Source: Micromonospora cathayae (GTDB taxonomy: Bacteria; Actinomycetota; Actinomycetes; Mycobacteriales; Micromonosporaceae). Taken from it: DNA of 64,000 nt. Of this stretch, positions 48,949 through 60,402 are shown in pieces. Under the pieces are notes generated by a model. It saw only the letters and a program-made list of their open reading frames with translations. It made no database searches and was not told where the DNA came from. How positions within the stretch are numbered: the stretch's first letter is position 1; each line of letters begins with the position of its first letter. A program made the position numbers and the translations under genes. Location of the stretch: NCBI RefSeq assembly GCF_028993575.1, contig NZ_CP118615.1, positions 4,803,001 to 4,867,000 of the forward strand. Direction: 5' to 3'.

Positions 48949-50730
48949 GTGAGGACAGGCGAAGCGCCGCGAGCGCGCCGTGGCCGACGGAAGGGCCGGG
49001 TGCGGCTGCACCGGGGCCTGCTGGCCGGCCTGGTGGTGGTCACGCTGTTGCTGGCCACCGTCGGCTGGGTCGGGTTCCGGGCCCGGCAGACCCGGGGCTA
49101 CCTGCTCAGCGCCGCAGAGCTGGCCCGCGACCTCGGCGGCCAGGTGGTCGGCGGCGATGCCGACCGGGCCCGACGGACCCTGGCGGCCCTCCAGGAGCAG
49201 GCTGCCGCCGCCCGCGCGGCCACCGAGGGTCCGAGCTGGTCCCTGGGCCGGCGGGTGCCGGTCGCCGGGGACGACCTGACCGCCGTCCGGCAGATCGCGG
49301 TGGCCGTGGACGAGTTGGCCCGGCGGGCGTTCCCCCGGCTGCTCGGCGTCGAGCTGACCACCCTGCTGCCCCGGGACGGTCGACTCGACCTGTCCGCGCT
49401 CCGGTCGGCGGAACGGGAACTGGCCGGGGCGGACGCCGTCGTGCGGGAGAACGTCACCCGACTGCACGGGGTGTCCACCGGGGGACTGGCCGCCGACGTC
49501 CGGTCTGCGTTGACCGGGTTGCGCGGCGAGGTCGACCGGCTCGCCGGGGTGACCGGCGCGGCCAGCCGGGGTGCCGCCCTGCTGCCCCGACTGCTGGGTG
49601 CCGACGAAGCCCGCGACTACCTGCTGGTGTCGCAGAATCTGGCCGAGCTCCGGGCCACCGGCGGGATGTTCGGCGCCTACACGGTGATCCGGGCGGAGGG
49701 CGGACGGGTCCGGATCGTGAAGCAGGGCACCGCCGCGCAACTGGGCCCCTTCACCCCGCCGTTGCCCGGGATCAGCCCGGAGATGCGCGGCCTCTACACC
49801 GACCTGCCCGGCATCTACCCCGCCGACGTGAACCTGACCCCGCACTTCCCGACCGCCGCCGCGCTGTACCGGGACATGGTGCGCCGCCGGACCGGTACCA
49901 CCGTGGACGGGGTGCTGGCGATCGACCCGGTGGCCCTGTCGTACCTGCTGGCCGCCACCGGCCCGGTCCAGGTGCCCGGGTTCGGGCAGCTCACCGGCGG
50001 CACCGTCGTCCGGGAACTGCTCGCCGACAGTTACCTGCGGCTCGACCTGAACGAGCAGGACGACTTCTTCGCCCGGTCGGCGGCGGCGATCTTCGATGCC
50101 TTCCTCACCCGGGCGGTGGAACCTCGGGGTCTTTTGTCGGCATTCAACCGATCTATTGCCGAAAGACGGATATTGTTATGGAGTGCCCATCCGGAGGAAC
50201 AGCGGGAAATCGGCGAGAGCCGGATTGCCGGGACGCTTCCGGAGCGGGAGGACCGACCGACGGTCGGCGTGTTCCTCAATGACGGCAGTGGCGCGAAGCT
50301 CGGTTACTACCTGAAGCCGAACGCGTCGCTGACGGTCGGCGGGTGCCGCCCCGACGGTCGGCGCGAACTCCGGCTGACCGTGTCACTGCGCTCCTCGGTG
50401 CCCCGGTCGGGGCTCACGTCCTCGGTGCTCGGCCTTGCCAGGGCGGGCGATCCGTACGTCGTCCGCACCCTGGTCAACGTCTTCAGTCCGGCCGCCGGAA
50501 CCGTGGTACGGGTCCGGTTGGACGGCGCGGAGACGCCGGTCGGCAGTGGTACCGAACGCAGCCGGCGGGTCGTCATCGCCAATGTCGAGGTCGCGCCGGG
50601 GCGTACCCGGATCCTCGAGGCCGACCTGTTGACGGCCCCGACGGAGATCGGAGAGGCCGAGCTGTGGCTGACCCCGACCGCCACCCCATGGACCACCCAC
50701 ATCCAATCCGCATCACGCTGTGACCAGTAG
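48949..50730 (+). CDS. DUF4012 membrane-anchored protein of polysaccharide clusters
   Basis: The protein of about 593 residues has a basic N terminus, one membrane helix (GLLAGLVVVTLLLATVGWVGF, about 20-40), a helical extracellular stalk (about 50-220), and the DUF4012 domain (about 225-360; YLLVSQNLAELRATGGMFGAY). A beta-rich C-terminal region follows. DUF4012 proteins occur with exopolysaccharide genes and resemble LytR-type ligand-binding folds; function is unproven. The GTG at 48949 follows CCAGGAG; an upstream GTG at 48928 is possible. Bases 50130-50290 are less GC-rich than the rest. Confidence 0.82.
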   Translation: MRTGEAPRARRGRRKGRVRLHRGLLAGLVVVTLLLATVGWVGFRARQTRGYLLSAAELARDLGGQVVGGDADRARRTLAALQEQAAAARAATEGPSWSLGRRVPVAGDDLTAVRQIAVAVDELARRAFPRLLGVELTTLLPRDGRLDLSALRSAERELAGADAVVRENVTRLHGVSTGGLAADVRSALTGLRGEVDRLAGVTGAASRGAALLPRLLGADEARDYLLVSQNLAELRATGGMFGAYTVIRAEGGRVRIVKQGTAAQLGPFTPPLPGISPEMRGLYTDLPGIYPADVNLTPHFPTAAALYRDMVRRRTGTTVDGVLAIDPVALSYLLAATGPVQVPGFGQLTGGTVVRELLADSYLRLDLNEQDDFFARSAAAIFDAFLTRAVEPRGLLSAFNRSIAERRILLWSAHPEEQREIGESRIAGTLPEREDRPTVGVFLNDGSGAKLGYYLKPNASLTVGGCRPDGRRELRLTVSLRSSVPRSGLTSSVLGLARAGDPYVVRTLVNVFSPAAGTVVRVRLDGAETPVGSGTERSRRVVIANVEVAPGRTRILEADLLTAPTEIGEAELWLTPTATPWTTHIQSASRCDQ

Positions 50731-50743
50731 GAAAGGACCCATC

Positions 50744-51523
50744 ATGCGGCTATCCCGCATCTTTACGGCCATCGCGGTCGGGCTGGCCGTCGTGGCCGTG
50801 CCGACCGCGGCGGGGGCGGCACTGTCCCAGCCGCAGCCCCCGCCCAACTCGCCGCAGTACCCGCCACAGCCGCCGCCCTACCCGCCCTACCCGCCGACGG
50901 GCCCGAACCTGACGGTCACCCCGAGCACCGTGGTGGTCGGCGAGACCGTCACCGTGACCGGCACCGGATTCGCACCGAACGAGCTGGTGGAGATCACCAT
51001 CACGACGAATCCGCAAGCCGCCGGGCTCGGTGGGTCGGACGGGACCGGCCAGCGTCTCGACGGCAGCACGGTGGCGATGGCCCCGGTCGCGTACCAGCGG
51101 CGGGACACGTCGCAGCCCGGGGGCCGGCCGGAGCACAAGGGCGGCCTGCCGGAGCACAAGGGCGGCACCTGGGACGGCTCCACCGACTGCACGCCGCAGA
51201 GCTTCGGTATCCGGGCCGACGCGCAGGGCTCCTTCGAGTTCACCTTCCGGCCCCGCTGCCCGGGAGAGGTGGTCATCACCGCCCGGGGCCTGGAGTCCGG
51301 ACGTACCGCGACGGCCGTGCTGACCGTCCTCAAGTACCACCACGGCGGTGGCAAGCCCGGTGACGGCAAGCCCGGTGGCGGCAAGCTGCCGGTGACCGGC
51401 AGCAGCAGCATGGACCTGCCGCTGAAGGTCGGTGGCGCGCTGGTCGGTGCCGGTGCGGTGATGCTGCTGGGGACGTTCCTCTGGCGGCGTCGTGACCGGT
51501 TCGGCTCGGGAGCGGCGAGCTAG
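50744..51523 (+). CDS. LPXTG-type sortase-anchored surface protein
   Basis: The 259-residue protein has a signal peptide (FTAIAVGLAVVAVPTAAGAA), a Pro/Tyr/Gln-rich linker, an Ig-like beta domain (about 60-210; LTVTPSTVVVGETVTVTGTG), a Gly/Lys-rich spacer, and a sorting signal: LPVTG, a hydrophobic helix and a basic tail (WRRRDRF). It should be attached to peptidoglycan by a sortase encoded elsewhere. It lies 14 bp after the DUF4012 gene with GGAAAGGA before the ATG, so both are likely one transcript. A duplicated PEHKGG motif is seen. Confidence 0.86.
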   Translation: MRLSRIFTAIAVGLAVVAVPTAAGAALSQPQPPPNSPQYPPQPPPYPPYPPTGPNLTVTPSTVVVGETVTVTGTGFAPNELVEITITTNPQAAGLGGSDGTGQRLDGSTVAMAPVAYQRRDTSQPGGRPEHKGGLPEHKGGTWDGSTDCTPQSFGIRADAQGSFEFTFRPRCPGEVVITARGLESGRTATAVLTVLKYHHGGGKPGDGKPGGGKLPVTGSSSMDLPLKVGGALVGAGAVMLLGTFLWRRRDRFGSGAAS

Positions 51524-51584: not shown

Positions 51585-53858
<2,274 letters not shown>

Positions 53859-54030: not shown

Positions 54031-54753
54031 GTGGCAGCCTCGCGCCGACTGCGCGCCGTCGACCTCGCGGCGAGCGCCGGGATCTCGGTCCAACAGGTCC
54101 GCAACTACGTCGACTCCGGGGTGCTCCCACCGGCCGAGCGCACCCCGGCCGGCTACCGGGTCTTCACCGCCGAACACGCCGAGGCGCTGACGGTGGCCCG
54201 CCGGATGGCCGAGGGCCACGGTTGGGCCCGGACCCGGGAGGTGATGGCCGCGGTGCACACCGGGGACCTGGCGTCGGCGCTGGCCGCGATCGACCGCGGA
54301 CACGCCGAACTGGACCGGGAACGCGCCGAGATCAGCCGGGCGCTCGGCGCGTTCGAGACCGTCCTGGCCGGCCCGGCGGTCACCCTGCCGGCCCGGCGAC
54401 GCGCGGTCCGCATCGGCGCGGTGGCCGACCTGGTCGGCGTCCGCACCCCGCTGCTGCGGCTGTGGGAGCGCCGGGGCCTGCTGCGCCCCGGCCGGGAGCG
54501 GGGCACCTCCTACCGGGTGTACGACGACACCGAACTGCGGGCCGCGCAGGTCGTGGCGTTGCTGCGGCGCGGCGGGTACCCGTTCGACATCGTCGCGTCG
54601 GTGCTCGACGAGCTGCGGACCACCGGCAGCCCGCAGCGGGTCCGGGCCGAGCTGGCCCGACGGGAACAGGACCTGCGCCGGCGCGGTCTGGCCCGCCTGG
54701 CCGCCTCCGCCGCCCTGCACGGCTACCTGCGGTACCGGGGACTGGTCCGCTGA
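54031..54753 (+). CDS. MerR-type regulator with two HTH domains (TioE-like)
   Basis: The 240-residue protein holds two MerR-like winged-HTH units in one chain: LRAVDLAASAGISVQQVRNYVDS (about 7-30) with RVFTAEH, and VRIGAVADLVGVRTPLLRLWE (about 129-150) with SYRVYDDTEL. A helix-rich dimer region lies between. It lacks the metal-binding cysteines of metal sensors. TACGGT lies 6 nt before the GTG, suggesting a leaderless transcript. The divergent UvrA-like gene is its probable target, as in drug-resistance modules. Confidence 0.86.
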   Translation: MAASRRLRAVDLAASAGISVQQVRNYVDSGVLPPAERTPAGYRVFTAEHAEALTVARRMAEGHGWARTREVMAAVHTGDLASALAAIDRGHAELDRERAEISRALGAFETVLAGPAVTLPARRRAVRIGAVADLVGVRTPLLRLWERRGLLRPGRERGTSYRVYDDTELRAAQVVALLRRGGYPFDIVASVLDELRTTGSPQRVRAELARREQDLRRRGLARLAASAALHGYLRYRGLVR

Positions 54754-55336: not shown

Positions 55337-56878
55337 TCAGCCCGGTCGGTCGGTCCGGTCGGAGGTCCGGTACGACCAGGACGTGCCGGTGCCCCGGTAC
55401 CGCGACACCGGGACCAACTCCGCCCCCGGTGGCATCCGGTCCCGGTACAGCCGGCCCTCCAGGTGGTCGATCTCGTGGGCCACCAGCCGGGCCAGTCCGT
55501 CCCGGAACTCGGTGATCACCGTCTGGCCGTCGACCTCCTGGTGGGCCACCTCGATCCGGACCGGCCGGCGGACGAGTCCCCGCACGTCGAAGAAGCTCAG
55601 GCAGCCCTCGTACTGCTCATCGGTCTCCCGGGACTCGTCGATCACCCGGGGGTTGAGCAGGACCAGCTCCGTACCGTCCGGGGTGCGGACGACCGCCGCC
55701 GACCGGCCGATGCCCACCTGGGGGGCGGCCAGCCCCATCCCCTTGGCGAACAGGTGCACCGCCGCGACCCGCGCCATCGTGGCGAGCAGGTGGGCCACCA
55801 CCCGCCGGGCGTCGTCGGCCTCGTCGGGCAGCGCGAACGGGGCGGCCCGCTCGCCCAGCACCGGTGCCCCCTCCTGGGCGATGCCCAGCTCGATCATGCG
55901 TTGGCTCGGTGTCGGCATGTCTTCGTCGCTCCTGTCGCCCCGGCGGGGTGCTGCCTTGAACGTCCACTCGATCCGGTACCGCGCGTGCAGCGGTGGGTTC
56001 TCCGTCGACCAGCCGAAGACCACCCGGTCCCCACGATCGTCCCGGCTGAAGTCCCGGGGAAAGGGTGACGGCTCGGCCGACATCGAGCTGCGCAGTCCCC
56101 ACACCACCGGACGCAGCGCCGCCGGGAAGTCGAGGGCGAGCGTCAACCGACGGGTGGGCAGCCGGATCGCCCGCTGCCACCACGGCCCCCACTTGCGCTC
56201 CGGTACCGAATAGGAATACGTGATCCACCGCCGGTCGCCGGGGTAGAGCGGGAACCGCCGTCCGCCGTTCTCGAAGAGCAGCCAGATCTCCTTGAAGGCG
56301 TCCCGGTCGTGCTGGACGTGGTGATCCATCCGCTCGTCGAGGCAGTAGGCGGCGAGTCGGGTCTCGGCCATGGTGAGGGGGTCCTCACGGTAATAGGCGT
56401 TGGACGCCGCCGGGTCACCGGGGAAGCGGTCGACCGAGATGCGGATCAGGTAGCGGGTCACCGGCTGGTCACCACGGTTGTGCAACTGCCGGCGCACCTC
56501 GGTGTGGAACGCGCCGTCGCGGTAGGTCAACCGGGCCATCTCGTGCTCCACCACGACCTCGGTGCCCGGCCAGGACTGCGGGTCGCCCACCGCCGGCCCG
56601 TGCCGGGGCGCCGGGGCGGTGGTGGCGGCCAGGTGCGTCGTGTGCAGGTCCTGCCAGCGGTGCACGATCGCCCGCCCGGCCTGCAACGACTGGTCCGCCC
56701 CCTCGGCGAACTCCCGGCTGGGCAGCAGCACCCCACCCTCTACCTTGGACACGTACGACGGGGTGTAGCCGACCAGTTTCGCCAGCGCCTTCTGGGACAG
56801 TCCGGCCACCTCCCGACGGTGCCGCAGTTCGGCGACGAAGGCCGCGACAGCCTCCCGGGTGGCGTCGTCGAGTTCCAT
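55337..56878 (-). CDS. HTH-XRE / sensor domain / peptide deformylase fusion
   Basis: The 513-residue protein joins three parts. An XRE-type HTH (about 15-65, with LSQKALAKLVGYTPSYVSKV) is followed by a middle domain (about 100-320, rich in Trp/Tyr/Arg; YLIRISVDRFPG, WLLFENGGRRFP) of no known function. The C-terminal peptide deformylase (about 325-505) keeps all three motifs, GMGLAAPQVGIG (380), EGCLSFFDV (422) and AHEIDHLEG (466), with normal spacing, so it should bind metal and be active. The combination suggests a regulator whose enzymatic module senses or removes formyl groups. The ATG at 56876-56878 precedes the HTH directly. An internal start at 55918 could yield the deformylase alone. 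Confidence 0.86.
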   Translation of the reverse strand: MELDDATREAVAAFVAELRHRREVAGLSQKALAKLVGYTPSYVSKVEGGVLLPSREFAEGADQSLQAGRAIVHRWQDLHTTHLAATTAPAPRHGPAVGDPQSWPGTEVVVEHEMARLTYRDGAFHTEVRRQLHNRGDQPVTRYLIRISVDRFPGDPAASNAYYREDPLTMAETRLAAYCLDERMDHHVQHDRDAFKEIWLLFENGGRRFPLYPGDRRWITYSYSVPERKWGPWWQRAIRLPTRRLTLALDFPAALRPVVWGLRSSMSAEPSPFPRDFSRDDRGDRVVFGWSTENPPLHARYRIEWTFKAAPRRGDRSDEDMPTPSQRMIELGIAQEGAPVLGERAAPFALPDEADDARRVVAHLLATMARVAAVHLFAKGMGLAAPQVGIGRSAAVVRTPDGTELVLLNPRVIDESRETDEQYEGCLSFFDVRGLVRRPVRIEVAHQEVDGQTVITEFRDGLARLVAHEIDHLEGRLYRDRMPPGAELVPVSRYRGTGTSWSYRTSDRTDRPG

Positions 56879-57017
56879 CCGTCGGCCTCCGCAGGGGGTG
56901 TGAGTGGATTGAACGGTGCGTGACCGCTGATCACCCTGTTGTCCACCGGTGCGGCCGGGTTCTGCTGGAGGCCGGCCGGTCAGCCGGGCGGCCGTGACAC
57001 GCGGTGGGAGGTCCGTG

Positions 57018-57505
57018 ATGAGCAGGAGGCGTACCCGGGCAGGCACCCCCCCCGGACGACGACGGCGGCGGCGGCCGGGGGCCGGGCGAACCGGTCGCAG
57101 ATCGTCGTAGCCGCAGCGGCCATCGCGGCCATGCTGGTCGTGGCCATGCTCGGCGTCGGGACCGACGACGGTTCGACGCCAGCGGTGATCGCGGCCATCG
57201 GCAGCCTCGGGATATCGGCGATCGATCTGGTCGGGCTGATTGTCCGCCGCCGCGCACGCGGACCACGACGGCGACCGCTGTCGGGTTTCCGTCACCGACG
57301 GTCGTCGGCCGGTCGCCGGCGGCGGACGCCGGTCACCCGACCGCCCGCATCGACAAGCACCGCCCTCCTCCATAGACTGCGATCTTTCCACTTCAGGCTG
57401 TCCAGGGAGGACCCGTGCCGCGCACACCACGACCACGATCCGTTGCCCCGTCGCCGGGGCGGCAGGGGTCGGCGACCTCCATCCGGCTGCTCGGCGGCGC
57501 GTTGA
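57018..57505 (+). CDS. Possible frameshifted small membrane protein
   Basis: An ATG at 57018 is preceded by a near-ideal GGGAGG (57007-57012), but its frame (MSRRRTRAGTPP) soon ends. Directly after it, a C8 run (57046-57053) leads, in the -1 frame, into a convincing two-helix protein (QIVVAAAAIAAMLVVAMLGV, and AAIGSLGISAIDLVGLIV followed by basic residues). The reading frame then continues without a clean stop to 57505, past the next gene start. One missing C in the run, or slippage at it, would restore a single gene. The true end is unclear. Confidence 0.4.
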
Positions 57506-58197
57506 TCGCCGGGGCGCTGCTCGCCGGGGCCGGGGTGGCCGCGCCGGCCGGTGCCGCCGCGCCGGCCCGGACCACGCCCGGCCCGTGCGGGTACACCGCC
57601 ACCCCCGAGGACCCGGCCGCCCGGCCGGTGCCGCTGCCGCCGGACCCCCGCCGCACCCCCGACCGGGGGACCGTCCGGGTGACCCTGCGCACCAACTACG
57701 GGCCGATCCCGTTGACCCTGGACCGGGAGCAGGCCCCCTGCACGGTGCAGAGCTTCCTGCACCTGACCCGGCACCGGTTCTACGACGACACCTCCTGCCA
57801 CCGGCTCACCGCGTACCCGACGTTGACCGTGTTGCAGTGCGGCGACCCGTCCGGCACCGGCGCGGGCGGCCCCGGCTACCGGTACGCCGACGAACTGCCC
57901 ACCGACCTGCCGCCGGCCCCGACCGACCCGACCGGGGTGCGCCGCCTCTACGCCCGGGGCACCCTGGCCATGGCCAACGCCGGCCCGGACACCAACGGTA
58001 GCCAGTTCTTCCTGGTCCAGGCCGATTCGGCGCTGCGCCCCAACTACACCGTGTTTGGCTCGATCGACCCGGTCGGCCTGGCCACCCTGGACCGGATCGC
58101 CGCCGCCGGCATCGCCCCCACCCCGGAGGACCCGGCCCCCGTCGACGGCGCGCCGGCCGCCCCCGTCGACATCGACCGGGCGGTCCGCCGCCACTGA
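57415..58197 (+). CDS. Secreted cyclophilin-type peptidyl-prolyl isomerase
   Basis: The 260-residue protein has an N-terminal signal sequence (IRLLGGALIAGALLAGAGVAAP) and a cyclophilin domain (about 80-255): TNYGPIPLTLDREQAPCTVQ, FYDDTSCHRLT, GDPSGTGAGGPGYRY, and TLAMANAGPDTNGSQFFLVQ. The catalytic Arg/Phe region departs from the consensus (HRLTAYPTLTVLQ), so activity may be lower. It would help fold exported proteins. GGGAGG precedes the GTG at 57415. TAGACT (57374 region) may be its -10 box. Confidence 0.9.
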   Translation: MPRTPRPRSVAPSPGRQGSATSIRLLGGALIAGALLAGAGVAAPAGAAAPARTTPGPCGYTATPEDPAARPVPLPPDPRRTPDRGTVRVTLRTNYGPIPLTLDREQAPCTVQSFLHLTRHRFYDDTSCHRLTAYPTLTVLQCGDPSGTGAGGPGYRYADELPTDLPPAPTDPTGVRRLYARGTLAMANAGPDTNGSQFFLVQADSALRPNYTVFGSIDPVGLATLDRIAAAGIAPTPEDPAPVDGAPAAPVDIDRAVRRH

Positions 58198-58549: not shown

Positions 58550-59749
58550 ATGAGTTTCACCCCGCTGCCCGGCACCCGGGCCCCGGTCCGGGTCTGGACC
58601 GACCCATACGCCATCGAGGCGCAGGCCCTGCGCCAGCTCCGCAACATCGGCGCGCTGCCCTGGGTACAGGGTGTGGCGGTGATGCCCGACGTGCACTTCG
58701 GCAAGGGCGCCACCGTCGGTTCGGTGATCGCGATGCGGCAGGCGGTCTCCCCGGCGGCGGTCGGCGTGGACATCGGCTGCGGCATGTCGGCGGTGCGTAC
58801 CTCGCTGACCGCGTCCGACCTGCCCGACGACCTCGCGCCGCTGCGCAGCGCCATCGAGGCGGCGATCCCGGTCGGGTTCGCCAAGCACGACCGGATGGTC
58901 GACCCGCGCCGGGTACGGGGGCTGGAGCAGCGCGGCTGGGACGACTTCTGGGGCCGGTTCGACGACCTGGACCGGCGGGTGCGGCAGCTCAAGGACCGGG
59001 CGCAGCACCAGCTCGGCACCCTCGGCGGCGGCAACCACTTCATCGAGGTCTGCCTGGAGCAGGGCGGCGACGACGAGGGCCGGGTCTGGCTGATGCTGCA
59101 CTCCGGTTCCCGCAACATCGGCAAGGAACTGGCCGAGCGGCACATGGCGGTGGCCCGGGGCCTGCCGCACAACACCGACCTGCCTGACCGGGACTTGGCG
59201 GTGTTCCTGGCCGGCACCCCGGAGATGGACGCCTACCGGCGGGACCTGTGGTGGGCGCAGGAGTACGCCCGCCGCAACCGGGCGGTCATGCTGGCGCTGC
59301 TGTGCAACGTGGTCCGCGAGCACCTGCCGCAGGTCAGCTACGACGAGCCGATCTCCTGCCACCACAACTACGTCGCCGAGGAGACCTACGACGGGGTGGA
59401 GGTGCTGGTGACCCGCAAGGGCGCGATCCGGGCCGGGGCCGGTGACCTGGGCATCATCCCCGGCTCGATGGGCACCGGCTCGTACGTCGTGCGCGGGCGG
59501 GGCAACCCCGACGCGTACTGCTCGGCGTCGCACGGGGCGGGCCGGCGGATGTCGCGGGGGCAGGCCAAGCGGACCTTCACCACCGAGGACCTGGCCGCCC
59601 AGACCGCCGGGGTGGAGTGCCGCAAGGACCCGGGGGTGGTCGACGAGATCCCCGGCGCGTACAAGGACATCGTCGAGGTGATGGCGCAGCAGGAGGACCT
59701 GGTCGAGGTGGTCGCGCACCTCAAGCAGGTGGTCTGCGTGAAGGGCTGA
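58550..59749 (+). CDS. rtcB: RNA-splicing ligase RtcB
   Basis: The 399-residue protein is a full RtcB: VMPDVHFGKGATVGSVI, metal-binding Cys in VGVDIGCGMSAV, GGGNHFIEV, CHHNYVAEE, and the guanylylated His in SASHGAGRRMSR (about residue 330). RtcB joins RNA 2',3'-cyclic phosphate and 5'-OH ends using GTP and Mn2+, for RNA repair. CCAGGAGGCGACC precedes the ATG. A short ORF and terminator-like hairpin upstream suggest regulated expression. No archease or RtcA gene is adjacent. Confidence 0.95.
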   Translation: MSFTPLPGTRAPVRVWTDPYAIEAQALRQLRNIGALPWVQGVAVMPDVHFGKGATVGSVIAMRQAVSPAAVGVDIGCGMSAVRTSLTASDLPDDLAPLRSAIEAAIPVGFAKHDRMVDPRRVRGLEQRGWDDFWGRFDDLDRRVRQLKDRAQHQLGTLGGGNHFIEVCLEQGGDDEGRVWLMLHSGSRNIGKELAERHMAVARGLPHNTDLPDRDLAVFLAGTPEMDAYRRDLWWAQEYARRNRAVMLALLCNVVREHLPQVSYDEPISCHHNYVAEETYDGVEVLVTRKGAIRAGAGDLGIIPGSMGTGSYVVRGRGNPDAYCSASHGAGRRMSRGQAKRTFTTEDLAAQTAGVECRKDPGVVDEIPGAYKDIVEVMAQQEDLVEVVAHLKQVVCVKG

Positions 59750-59838: not shown

Positions 59839-60402
59839 TTATGGCTGTGCAGGCTCCGACACCGGTTGCAGCTGAACCAGGATCATCCGGCTATCACCAT
59901 CGGCAAGGTACGCCGCCCGGACCCGGTGCTCGCCCGGGTGCAGATCGATCACGAGGTGGTTGTCGGGCTCCAACTCCGCTCCGGGCCACGCCGAATCGAA
60001 CATCACGACTGACCCGTCCACCACCCAGCGGACATCCTCGTCCGCGTCCCACTGAACGCCATCATGTACCGCTCGACGTGCAGCGCTCACCAGGTCGTCT
60101 TCCTCGTATGCCGCCGCCCACCGCAGGAACAGCCGTTCCGCGGGCAGGTACGTCGTCATCGCCGGCTCGTCGCCCAGCACAAGCGCCTGCCACGGACCGA
60201 CGGCGACCAGGCCAACGAAACCGTCGATCGCGCACGCCCGGCCGTAGTCGCCCCAGCTCTCCACGGGGCCATCCGTGCTATCGACACCGGCCCACAGCGA
60301 TAGCGCCGATCGCGGAGCGACGAGCAGCGGCCCGCCCGCCGACGAAACCCAGGTATACTGCAACGAAGCCACCTCCCCCACATCTGGTCTTACCACTGTC
60401 AT
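59839..60402 (-). CDS. Imm21-type immunity protein
   Basis: The 187-residue protein resembles Imm21 immunity proteins: YTWVSSAGGPLLVAPRSALS, YGRACAIDGFVGLVAVGPWQ, ALVLGDEPAMTTYLPAERLF and a beta-rich end. Immunity proteins neutralise polymorphic toxins delivered between cells. No toxin gene is seen in the window, so this is an orphan, as is common in defence stockpiles. The start is uncertain: the frame begins at 60402, but GGGGAGGTGGCTTC near 60370 may point to a TTG nearer the fold. Confidence 0.75.
   Translation of the reverse strand: MTVVRPDVGEVASLQYTWVSSAGGPLLVAPRSALSLWAGVDSTDGPVESWGDYGRACAIDGFVGLVAVGPWQALVLGDEPAMTTYLPAERLFLRWAAAYEEDDLVSAARRAVHDGVQWDADEDVRWVVDGSVVMFDSAWPGAELEPDNHLVIDLHPGEHRVRAAYLADGDSRMILVQLQPVSEPAQP

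What the first reader, a model, noticed from the sequence alone, without database searches (positions are those of the whole stretch)
55337..56878. HTH-sensor-peptide deformylase fusion
Seen: one 513-codon frame links an XRE-type HTH, a 220-residue unassigned domain and a deformylase whose three motifs (GMGLAAPQ, EGCLS, HEIDH) are intact and normally spaced. Known: deformylases are normally stand-alone enzymes acting on nascent chains. Inference: the enzymatic domain may sense or process formylated peptides and switch the HTH, or the deformylase may be activated in a regulated way, for example as a self-resistance copy.
Basis: partly seen in the sequence, partly recalled or inferred. Interest (0 to 1): 0.75.

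Follow-up and report, generated by a model that had tools for sequence, protein, structure and literature searches.

The report
Self-regulating HTH–peptide deformylase switch protein
A widespread actinobacterial protein joins a DNA-binding domain, a sandwich-shaped middle domain and an intact-looking peptide deformylase, and relatives carry a conserved DNA motif in front of the gene, which suggests that an enzyme of protein maturation has been recruited into a local gene switch.

Summary
Window 55337-56878, minus strand, encodes 513 aa: XRE HTH (14-73), an unassigned middle domain, and a peptide deformylase (PDF, 333-484). It belongs to a large actinobacterial family; Q387, C426, H468, E469 and H472 are kept in 296 of 296 PDF-bearing rows. 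The middle domain has the β-sandwich fold of ribophorin I and the M1-aminopeptidase N-domain (structure only). In a Streptomyces-type clade the gene is split into HTH-middle and PDF genes with a GTGA overlap (11 of 12 loci; 9 of 9 new split loci), so a covalent link is not essential. New here: outside Micromonosporaceae-type copies a conserved element (TGAR-N5-7-YTCAYNCAY plus repeats) lies just upstream: 25 of 32 loci against 0.28% of background windows; 12 of 12 further readable genus loci. It is nearly confined to this promoter in the genomes searched. In 12 of 13 plasmid records opened the gene is divergent from its neighbour, usually a small enzyme operon. Best reading: a local autoregulator whose PDF is trigger enzyme or regulated output. 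Binding, activity and sensing are inferred. The window copy is a diverged accessory member.

The parts
55337..56878 (-). HTH-middle-PDF gene, 513 aa (P0001)
56660..56839 (-). XRE-type HTH (HTH_31), residues 14-73
55913..56581 (-). middle domain with linker, residues 100-322; beta-sandwich with the fold of ribophorin I / M1-aminopeptidase N-domain
   Evidence: structure; no sequence support for M1_N
55427..55882 (-). peptide deformylase domain, residues 333-484
55718..55741 (-). PDF motif 1 GMGLAAPQ, residues 380-387
   Evidence: conservation
55595..55609 (-). PDF motif 2 EGCLS, residues 424-428
   Evidence: conservation
55463..55477 (-). PDF motif 3 HEIDH, residues 468-472
   Evidence: conservation
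56900..56934 (-). putative operator: GTGATCAGCGGTCAC inverted repeat followed by GCACCGTTCAATCCACTCAC; not matched by the family pattern at <=1 mismatch (2 by my count), so assigned by eye
   Evidence: not found; GTTCAATCCACTCACACC, which overlaps it, is the only such site in the own genome at <=3 mismatches
55916..55933 (-). possible internal start (AGGAG, then ATG of M321) near the place where split relatives start their separate PDF; weak lead
57415..58197 (+). divergent neighbour: secreted-looking cyclophilin-type PPIase, 536 nt away; a link is not shown

Best explanation
The protein is a local, self-regulating transcription factor with an active enzyme built in. The HTH-middle part binds a TGAR-N6-YTCAYTCAY element with further TCAC repeats just upstream of its own start codon and, where a gene starts divergently close by, controls that operon too. 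The PDF domain is catalytically competent and works as a trigger enzyme: N-formyl-peptide load or inhibitor occupancy at the PDF, passed through the beta-sandwich domain, changes DNA binding and so adjusts the supply of this accessory deformylase and of the neighbouring operon. Shown by sequence: architecture, active-site conservation, a conserved near-unique upstream element in relatives, divergent layout, a coupled split form. Inferred: HTH binding to that element, the sign of regulation, PDF activity, and PDF as input.
For: Catalytic residues invariant in 296 of 296 PDF-bearing rows. Composite element within 110 nt upstream in 25 of 32 non-Micromonosporaceae-type loci against 71 of 25252 background windows (75 of 81 loci had a start that could be placed). 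With the pattern fixed: 4 of 6 plasmid loci not looked at before (one of the four, L160, is a 99% copy of a seen locus, so 3 of 5) and 13 of 13 readable of 14 loci of a genus sample (200-nt windows; L189 is identical to L077, so 12 of 12 new). The exact core occurs once in 5 of 6 genomes, each time about 40-50 nt before the HTH-PDF start (coordinates); 3 further sites have 2 mismatches, and the reversed control gave 2 sites. The window's own site is unique at <=3 mismatches. Upstream gene divergent in 12 of 13 plasmid records opened and in 19 of 20 loci with a heuristic gene call (gaps -25 to 2301 nt, some calls doubtful). HTH-middle and PDF trees agree broadly by eye. Split forms keep element and coupling. 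The own genome has three stand-alone PDFs, one followed by what reads as a methionyl-tRNA formyltransferase (by eye), so this PDF is accessory. PutA and BirA are precedents for enzymes that repress their own operons (PMC6978683, passages).
Against: No binding or activity data. The 43 Micromonosporaceae-type copies (41 by genus plus two MAG loci grouped with them by me) lack the element (0 of 43), although the HTH recognition region of the own paralogue resembles that of a split Streptomyces form that has it. The window copy itself misses the pattern at <=1 mismatch, sits on a long branch and faces a cyclophilin 536 nt away, not a biosynthetic operon. PDF-less HTH-middle proteins exist (4 of 4 opened from genus g213), so the PDF is no obligatory input. 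In split forms the PDF is a separate polypeptide. Full-length model pTM 0.54: no trusted contact between domains. Apart from the two copies, the test loci are 73-93% identical in DNA to seen ones over the best stretch, so part of the conservation is descent.
Confidence: 0.45

Rival explanations
1. Regulated accessory deformylase: HTH-middle senses some other signal and the PDF is simply the output, made with the regulator from one promoter and needed when housekeeping PDF is limiting or inhibited.
For: Stable split form with GTGA overlap and a Shine-Dalgarno-like stretch; a 4-nt overlap is annotated independently in the plasmid records; PDF-less HTH-middle relatives keep HTH and middle domain; natural PDF inhibitors such as actinonin exist (PMC12130866, abstract and passages).
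Against: 68 of 80 loci keep middle domain and PDF in one frame; I recognised no inhibitor-biosynthesis genes among the neighbours read; no resistance context among 7 window neighbours.
Confidence: 0.3
2. The PDF acts on a formylated intermediate or product of the adjacent operon (tailoring or activation enzyme), with the HTH as pathway-specific regulator.
For: The gene is divergent from small enzyme operons on plasmids.
Against: The operons differ (glycosyltransferases; QueD/QueE/FolE; D-Ala ligase/M55; methyltransferase/deoxyribosyltransferase; radical SAM/creatininase), and one neighbour is a MazF-like pair; a shared N-formyl product is unlikely.
Confidence: 0.1
3. The upstream element is a core-promoter, leader or RNA feature, not bound by this HTH; the protein regulates something else.
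For: The element lies mostly 45-63 nt before the start; Micromonosporaceae-type copies, one with a similar recognition region, lack it.
Against: Close copies are almost confined to this gene's promoter in the genomes searched, so it is no general promoter or leader part.
Confidence: 0.13

Closest known systems
Peptide deformylase (PF01327 / TIGR00079)
   Same: Fold match to solved PDFs, all three motifs and active-site residues
   Different: C-terminal in a 513-aa regulator; below the curated NCBIfam equivalog cut-off (98.3 against 103.95 bits); its clade is far from the genome's stand-alone PDFs
Trigger enzymes / enzyme-repressors (PutA, BirA)
   Same: An enzyme and a DNA-binding domain in one chain; here with a conserved element in front of the gene in relatives
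   Different: No PDF example was listed by the searches; ligand dependence untested
M1 aminopeptidase N-terminal beta-saddle, ribophorin I/OST1, DUF3857
   Different: 6-14% identity; hhalign probability 0.2% against M1_N; weak DUF3857 hits in 3 of 20 members; no M1 catalytic domain in Pfam
XRE regulators coupled or fused to ImmA/IrrE metallopeptidases (recalled)
   Same: XRE HTH coupled to an HExxH metalloenzyme, fused or in adjacent genes
   Different: The enzyme here is a PDF; no ImmA/IrrE Pfam match

Membership tests
Peptide deformylase | Pfam PF01327 above the curated cut-off | tested here: met
   120.2 bits against 22.8
Peptide deformylase | Metal ligands and catalytic residues (Q, C, H, E, H) | tested here: met
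   296 of 296 rows
Peptide deformylase | NCBIfam equivalog TIGR00079 cut-off (stand-alone Def) | tested here: not met
   98.3 against 103.95 bits; so not filed as an ordinary Def
Peptide deformylase | Deformylase activity | not testable with these tools
   needs an assay
XRE regulator (HTH_31) | HTH domain above the curated cut-off | tested here: met
   48.8 against 27 bits
XRE regulator (HTH_31) | Sequence-specific binding at a promoter | tested here: inconclusive
   conserved near-unique upstream element in relatives, absent in 43 of 43 Micromonosporaceae-type copies; no binding data
Trigger enzyme / autorepressor | Enzyme and DNA-binding domain in one chain or complex | tested here: met
   one chain in the window; overlapping genes in the split clade, where a complex is untested
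Trigger enzyme / autorepressor | DNA binding depends on the enzyme's ligand | not testable with these tools
   needs EMSA with ligand
M1 aminopeptidase N-domain (PF17900) | Sequence-profile match | tested here: not met
   no Pfam hit; hhalign probability 0.2%
M1 aminopeptidase N-domain (PF17900) | Fold | tested here: met
DUF3857 | Sequence-profile match | tested here: inconclusive
   3 of 20 members, best E 0.0011; window member none
Self-resistance PDF of an inhibitor cluster | Inhibitor biosynthesis genes next to it | tested here: inconclusive
   none among 7 window neighbours scanned; wider neighbourhood not scanned
ImmA/IrrE-XRE | PF06114 metallopeptidase domain (accession recalled) | tested here: not met
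   no such match among Pfam hits at E<=1

The most novel reading that the evidence does not exclude
Peptide deformylase, an essential enzyme of nascent-chain processing, has been recruited across Actinobacteria as the signal-input module of a self-contained transcription switch (HTH, ribophorin/M1N-like sandwich, PDF) that travels on plasmids and integrative elements and gates small biosynthetic operons in response to formyl-peptide load, i.e. to the state of translation.
Probability: 0.33. Interest if true: 0.88.

Novelty: new variant of a known kind. Interest (0 to 1): 0.7.

Why it matters
Where a source names these proteins, the name is mostly plain 'peptide deformylase'. If they are regulators, a large family is misread, a concrete promoter element makes the claim testable in one gel, and PDF, a drug target with natural inhibitors, gains a signalling role. 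The gene may also mark small mobile enzyme operons next to which it lies.

Tried and rejected
Universal protein partner: rejected; neighbours differ by lineage. A frameshift joining the split ORFs: considered because ORF2 lies in the -1 frame; rejected because 11 of 12 loci have a GTGA stop-start with an SD-like stretch before it, and in the twelfth (L079) an indel moves the ORF1 stop while the GTG is kept. Internal initiation in fused genes as a rule: rejected; 5 of 63 loci have SD plus start, and only the window's beats its synonymous shuffles clearly (0 of 300; L001, L002, L005 do not, L034 0.08), modest after 63 tests. M1_N homology by sequence: not supported. A TGTCAAG-type element for Micromonosporaceae copies: cannot be judged, 24 hits in the own genome at <=1 mismatch against 24 in the reversed control. 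Defence system: only weak HTH matches in PADLOC. Phage carriage: none of 140 phage records with a match covers 80% of the query. Literature: ten searches (empty) listed no paper that is about this fusion; I saw listings and the passages only, and subscription papers are mostly not held.

Other rootings of the PDF tree were not tested; the root rests on three long-branched stand-alone PDFs. Rows dropped: alignment A3 lost L007, L008, L024, L031, L038 and L061 after stop-codon errors or by choice, and ends of locus rows were cut; L030, L037, L046, L064, L065, P0195 and P0242 had no junction match, and the L079 PDF start was set wrongly there, so it fell out of the PDF tree. The promoter tests used 75 of 81 loci; L195 was unreadable.

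Full report
WHAT IS THERE. The frame is real and on the minus strand of 55337-56878: 513 aa, HTH_31 at 14-73, PF01327 at 333-484, nothing in Pfam between. The protein search found 1676 homologues at E<=1e-3 among the 7994 candidates scored (120 listed), and 112 loci in genome contigs of which 80 were kept, all actinobacterial by title. Of 142 proteins held after searches matched my expression for motif 1, 136 for motif 2 and 135 for motif 3; of the 11 with a miss, six are truncated, frameshifted or PDF-less and five are full length but miss one expression. On a profile alignment of 301 PDF-bearing rows, 296 (280 distinct) covered at least 12 of 13 positions: G380, G382, Q387, E424, C426, S428, H468, E469 and H472 were invariant; G425, R438 and D471 varied in one row each and L427 in six.

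DISTRIBUTION AND COPIES. The own genome has five PDFs: three stand-alone, one followed by what reads as a methionyl-tRNA formyltransferase, and two fusions. In the window's family 123 of 150 sampled genomes carry the middle domain; in a phylum sample 5 of 296, two of them weak (at most 10 candidates per listed genome were scored); in a Streptomyces-like genus (name inferred) 13 of 121. The own paralogue (L085) groups with Micromonosporaceae copies; the window copy groups with Streptosporangiaceae and other proteins on a long branch. Its GC3 was 0.86, measured on an over-long 699-codon frame, against 0.88-0.96 in six window neighbours: at most a hint of acquisition.

FUSED, SPLIT AND PDF-LESS FORMS. 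Twelve of the 80 loci have separate HTH-middle and PDF frames; 11 share a GTGA stop-start, and in the twelfth the GTG is kept while the ORF1 stop has moved. The other 68 have middle domain and PDF in one frame, 58 of them with a recognisable HTH in it. In the genus sample, of 14 matches 10 are split (all ten GTGA, all with both PDF motifs tested in ORF2), 3 fused and 1 unreadable; one of the split ones, L189, is identical to L077, so nine are new. Two plasmid records show the same 4-nt overlap in public annotation. Split forms are monophyletic: 100/98 in the PDF tree (11 rows), 100/99 in the HTH-middle tree (16 rows, with four 324-328-aa proteins that are probably ORF1 alone), and nested among fused forms when rooted on the three own stand-alone PDFs; the long outgroup branch makes this root soft. 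PDF-less HTH-middle proteins occur in Micromonospora and in 4 of 4 opened loci of genus g213, with no PDF motif in the 3.0-3.5 kb fetched. In two loci of g241 PDF motifs lie in a separate gene on the other strand.

THE PROMOTER ELEMENT. Reading upstream regions showed repeated TCAY units. Pairs of TCAYTCAY units (one mismatch allowed) 10-13 nt apart were found in 24 of 32 non-Micromonosporaceae-type loci, 0 of 43 Micromonosporaceae-type, and 8 of 24574 background windows. A composite TGAR-N5-7-YTCAYNCAY (<=1 mismatch) was found in 25 of 32, 0 of 43, 9 of 12 plasmid loci, and 71 of 25252 background windows. Six of those plasmid loci had been looked at before the pattern was written; of the six not looked at, 4 had it, and one of the four (L160) is a 99% copy of a seen locus, leaving 3 of 5. 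The three plasmid misses, all Nocardia, carry an ACTCAC repeat variant by eye. With the pattern fixed, 13 of 13 readable loci had it (200-nt windows); without L189, 12 of 12. Apart from the two copies, the test loci are 73-93% identical in DNA to seen ones over the best stretch (L195, unreadable, 95%), so rows are not independent; composite hits span at least four named families (Streptomycetaceae, Thermomonosporaceae, Streptosporangiaceae, Pseudonocardiaceae). The window's own site is missed by both tests and assigned by eye. In six genomes the core CAYTCACGGTTCAYTCAY was found exactly once in five, each time about 40-50 nt before the HTH-PDF start, and not in the sixth (L043's); three more sites have two mismatches, and the reversed control gave two. 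GTTCAATCCACTCACACC of the window is unique in its genome within 3 mismatches. The Micromonosporaceae absence is the main result against a single HTH-operator code.

NEIGHBOURS. In plasmid records 13 cover at least 80% of the query. I opened 11 of these (not H2, H8) and two weaker ones (H14, H15): in 12 of 13 the upstream gene is divergent, 134-443 nt between annotated starts, and usually heads a small enzyme operon: glycosyltransferases, QueD/QueE/FolE, methyltransferase/uracil-DNA-glycosylase-like, D-Ala ligase/dehydratase/peptidase/M55, radical SAM/creatininase/arylsulfotransferase, dTDP-glucose dehydratase/ATP-grasp/DegT; one faces a MazF-like pair, and one is not divergent. On chromosomes a heuristic gene call gave 19 of 20 divergent (21 loci tried, one without an upstream call), and Pfam named similar enzymes, an integrase and a pSAM2-type replication protein among chosen neighbours. 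In the window the divergent gene is a cyclophilin 536 nt away.

READING. The plainest account is a local autoregulator that carries or co-produces a deformylase with an intact active site. Whether the PDF is input (trigger enzyme, like PutA or BirA; PMC6978683 passages) or output is open. The fusion and the invariant active site favour a functional link; the split clade and PDF-less relatives show the regulator core is separable. No call tests activity, binding or sensing. Eight literature searches naming the deformylase listed no paper about this fusion; absence from print is not claimed.

Noticed in passing
window 59839-60402 (-): Immunity protein 21 (Imm21) family gene, 4.1e-59; its toxin partner was not looked for.
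   Followed up: no
window 54031-54753 (+): A protein with two MerR-type HTH matches in one chain.
   Followed up: no
window 51585-53858 (-): An ABC-type ATPase that reads as UvrA-like, with a weak DnaJ-type zinc match (the name UvrA is by eye).
   Followed up: no
window 58553-59749 (+): RtcB RNA ligase next to a secreted-looking cyclophilin.
   Followed up: no
window 50720-51523 (+): Proline-rich secreted-looking protein with a C-terminal LPVTG-like sorting signal, by eye.
   Followed up: no
L122-L125 (genus g213): HTH-middle genes without PDF; some keep a TGTCAAG..TGTC-like upstream stretch seen in Micromonosporaceae fused copies.
   Followed up: partly
L126, L128 (genus g241): PDF motifs in a separate gene on the strand opposite to an HTH-middle gene.
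   Followed up: partly
L068-L071: MurC-like and MurF-like ligases beside split HTH/PDF genes, with D-Ala-ligase-like, PALP and C39-like genes in some: a possible cell-wall-precursor cassette.
   Followed up: partly
L151, L158, L159: Plasmid QueD/QueE/FolE operons beside HTH-PDF genes; two of the three also show phosphoribosyltransferase, thymidylate-kinase and radical-SAM genes.
   Followed up: no
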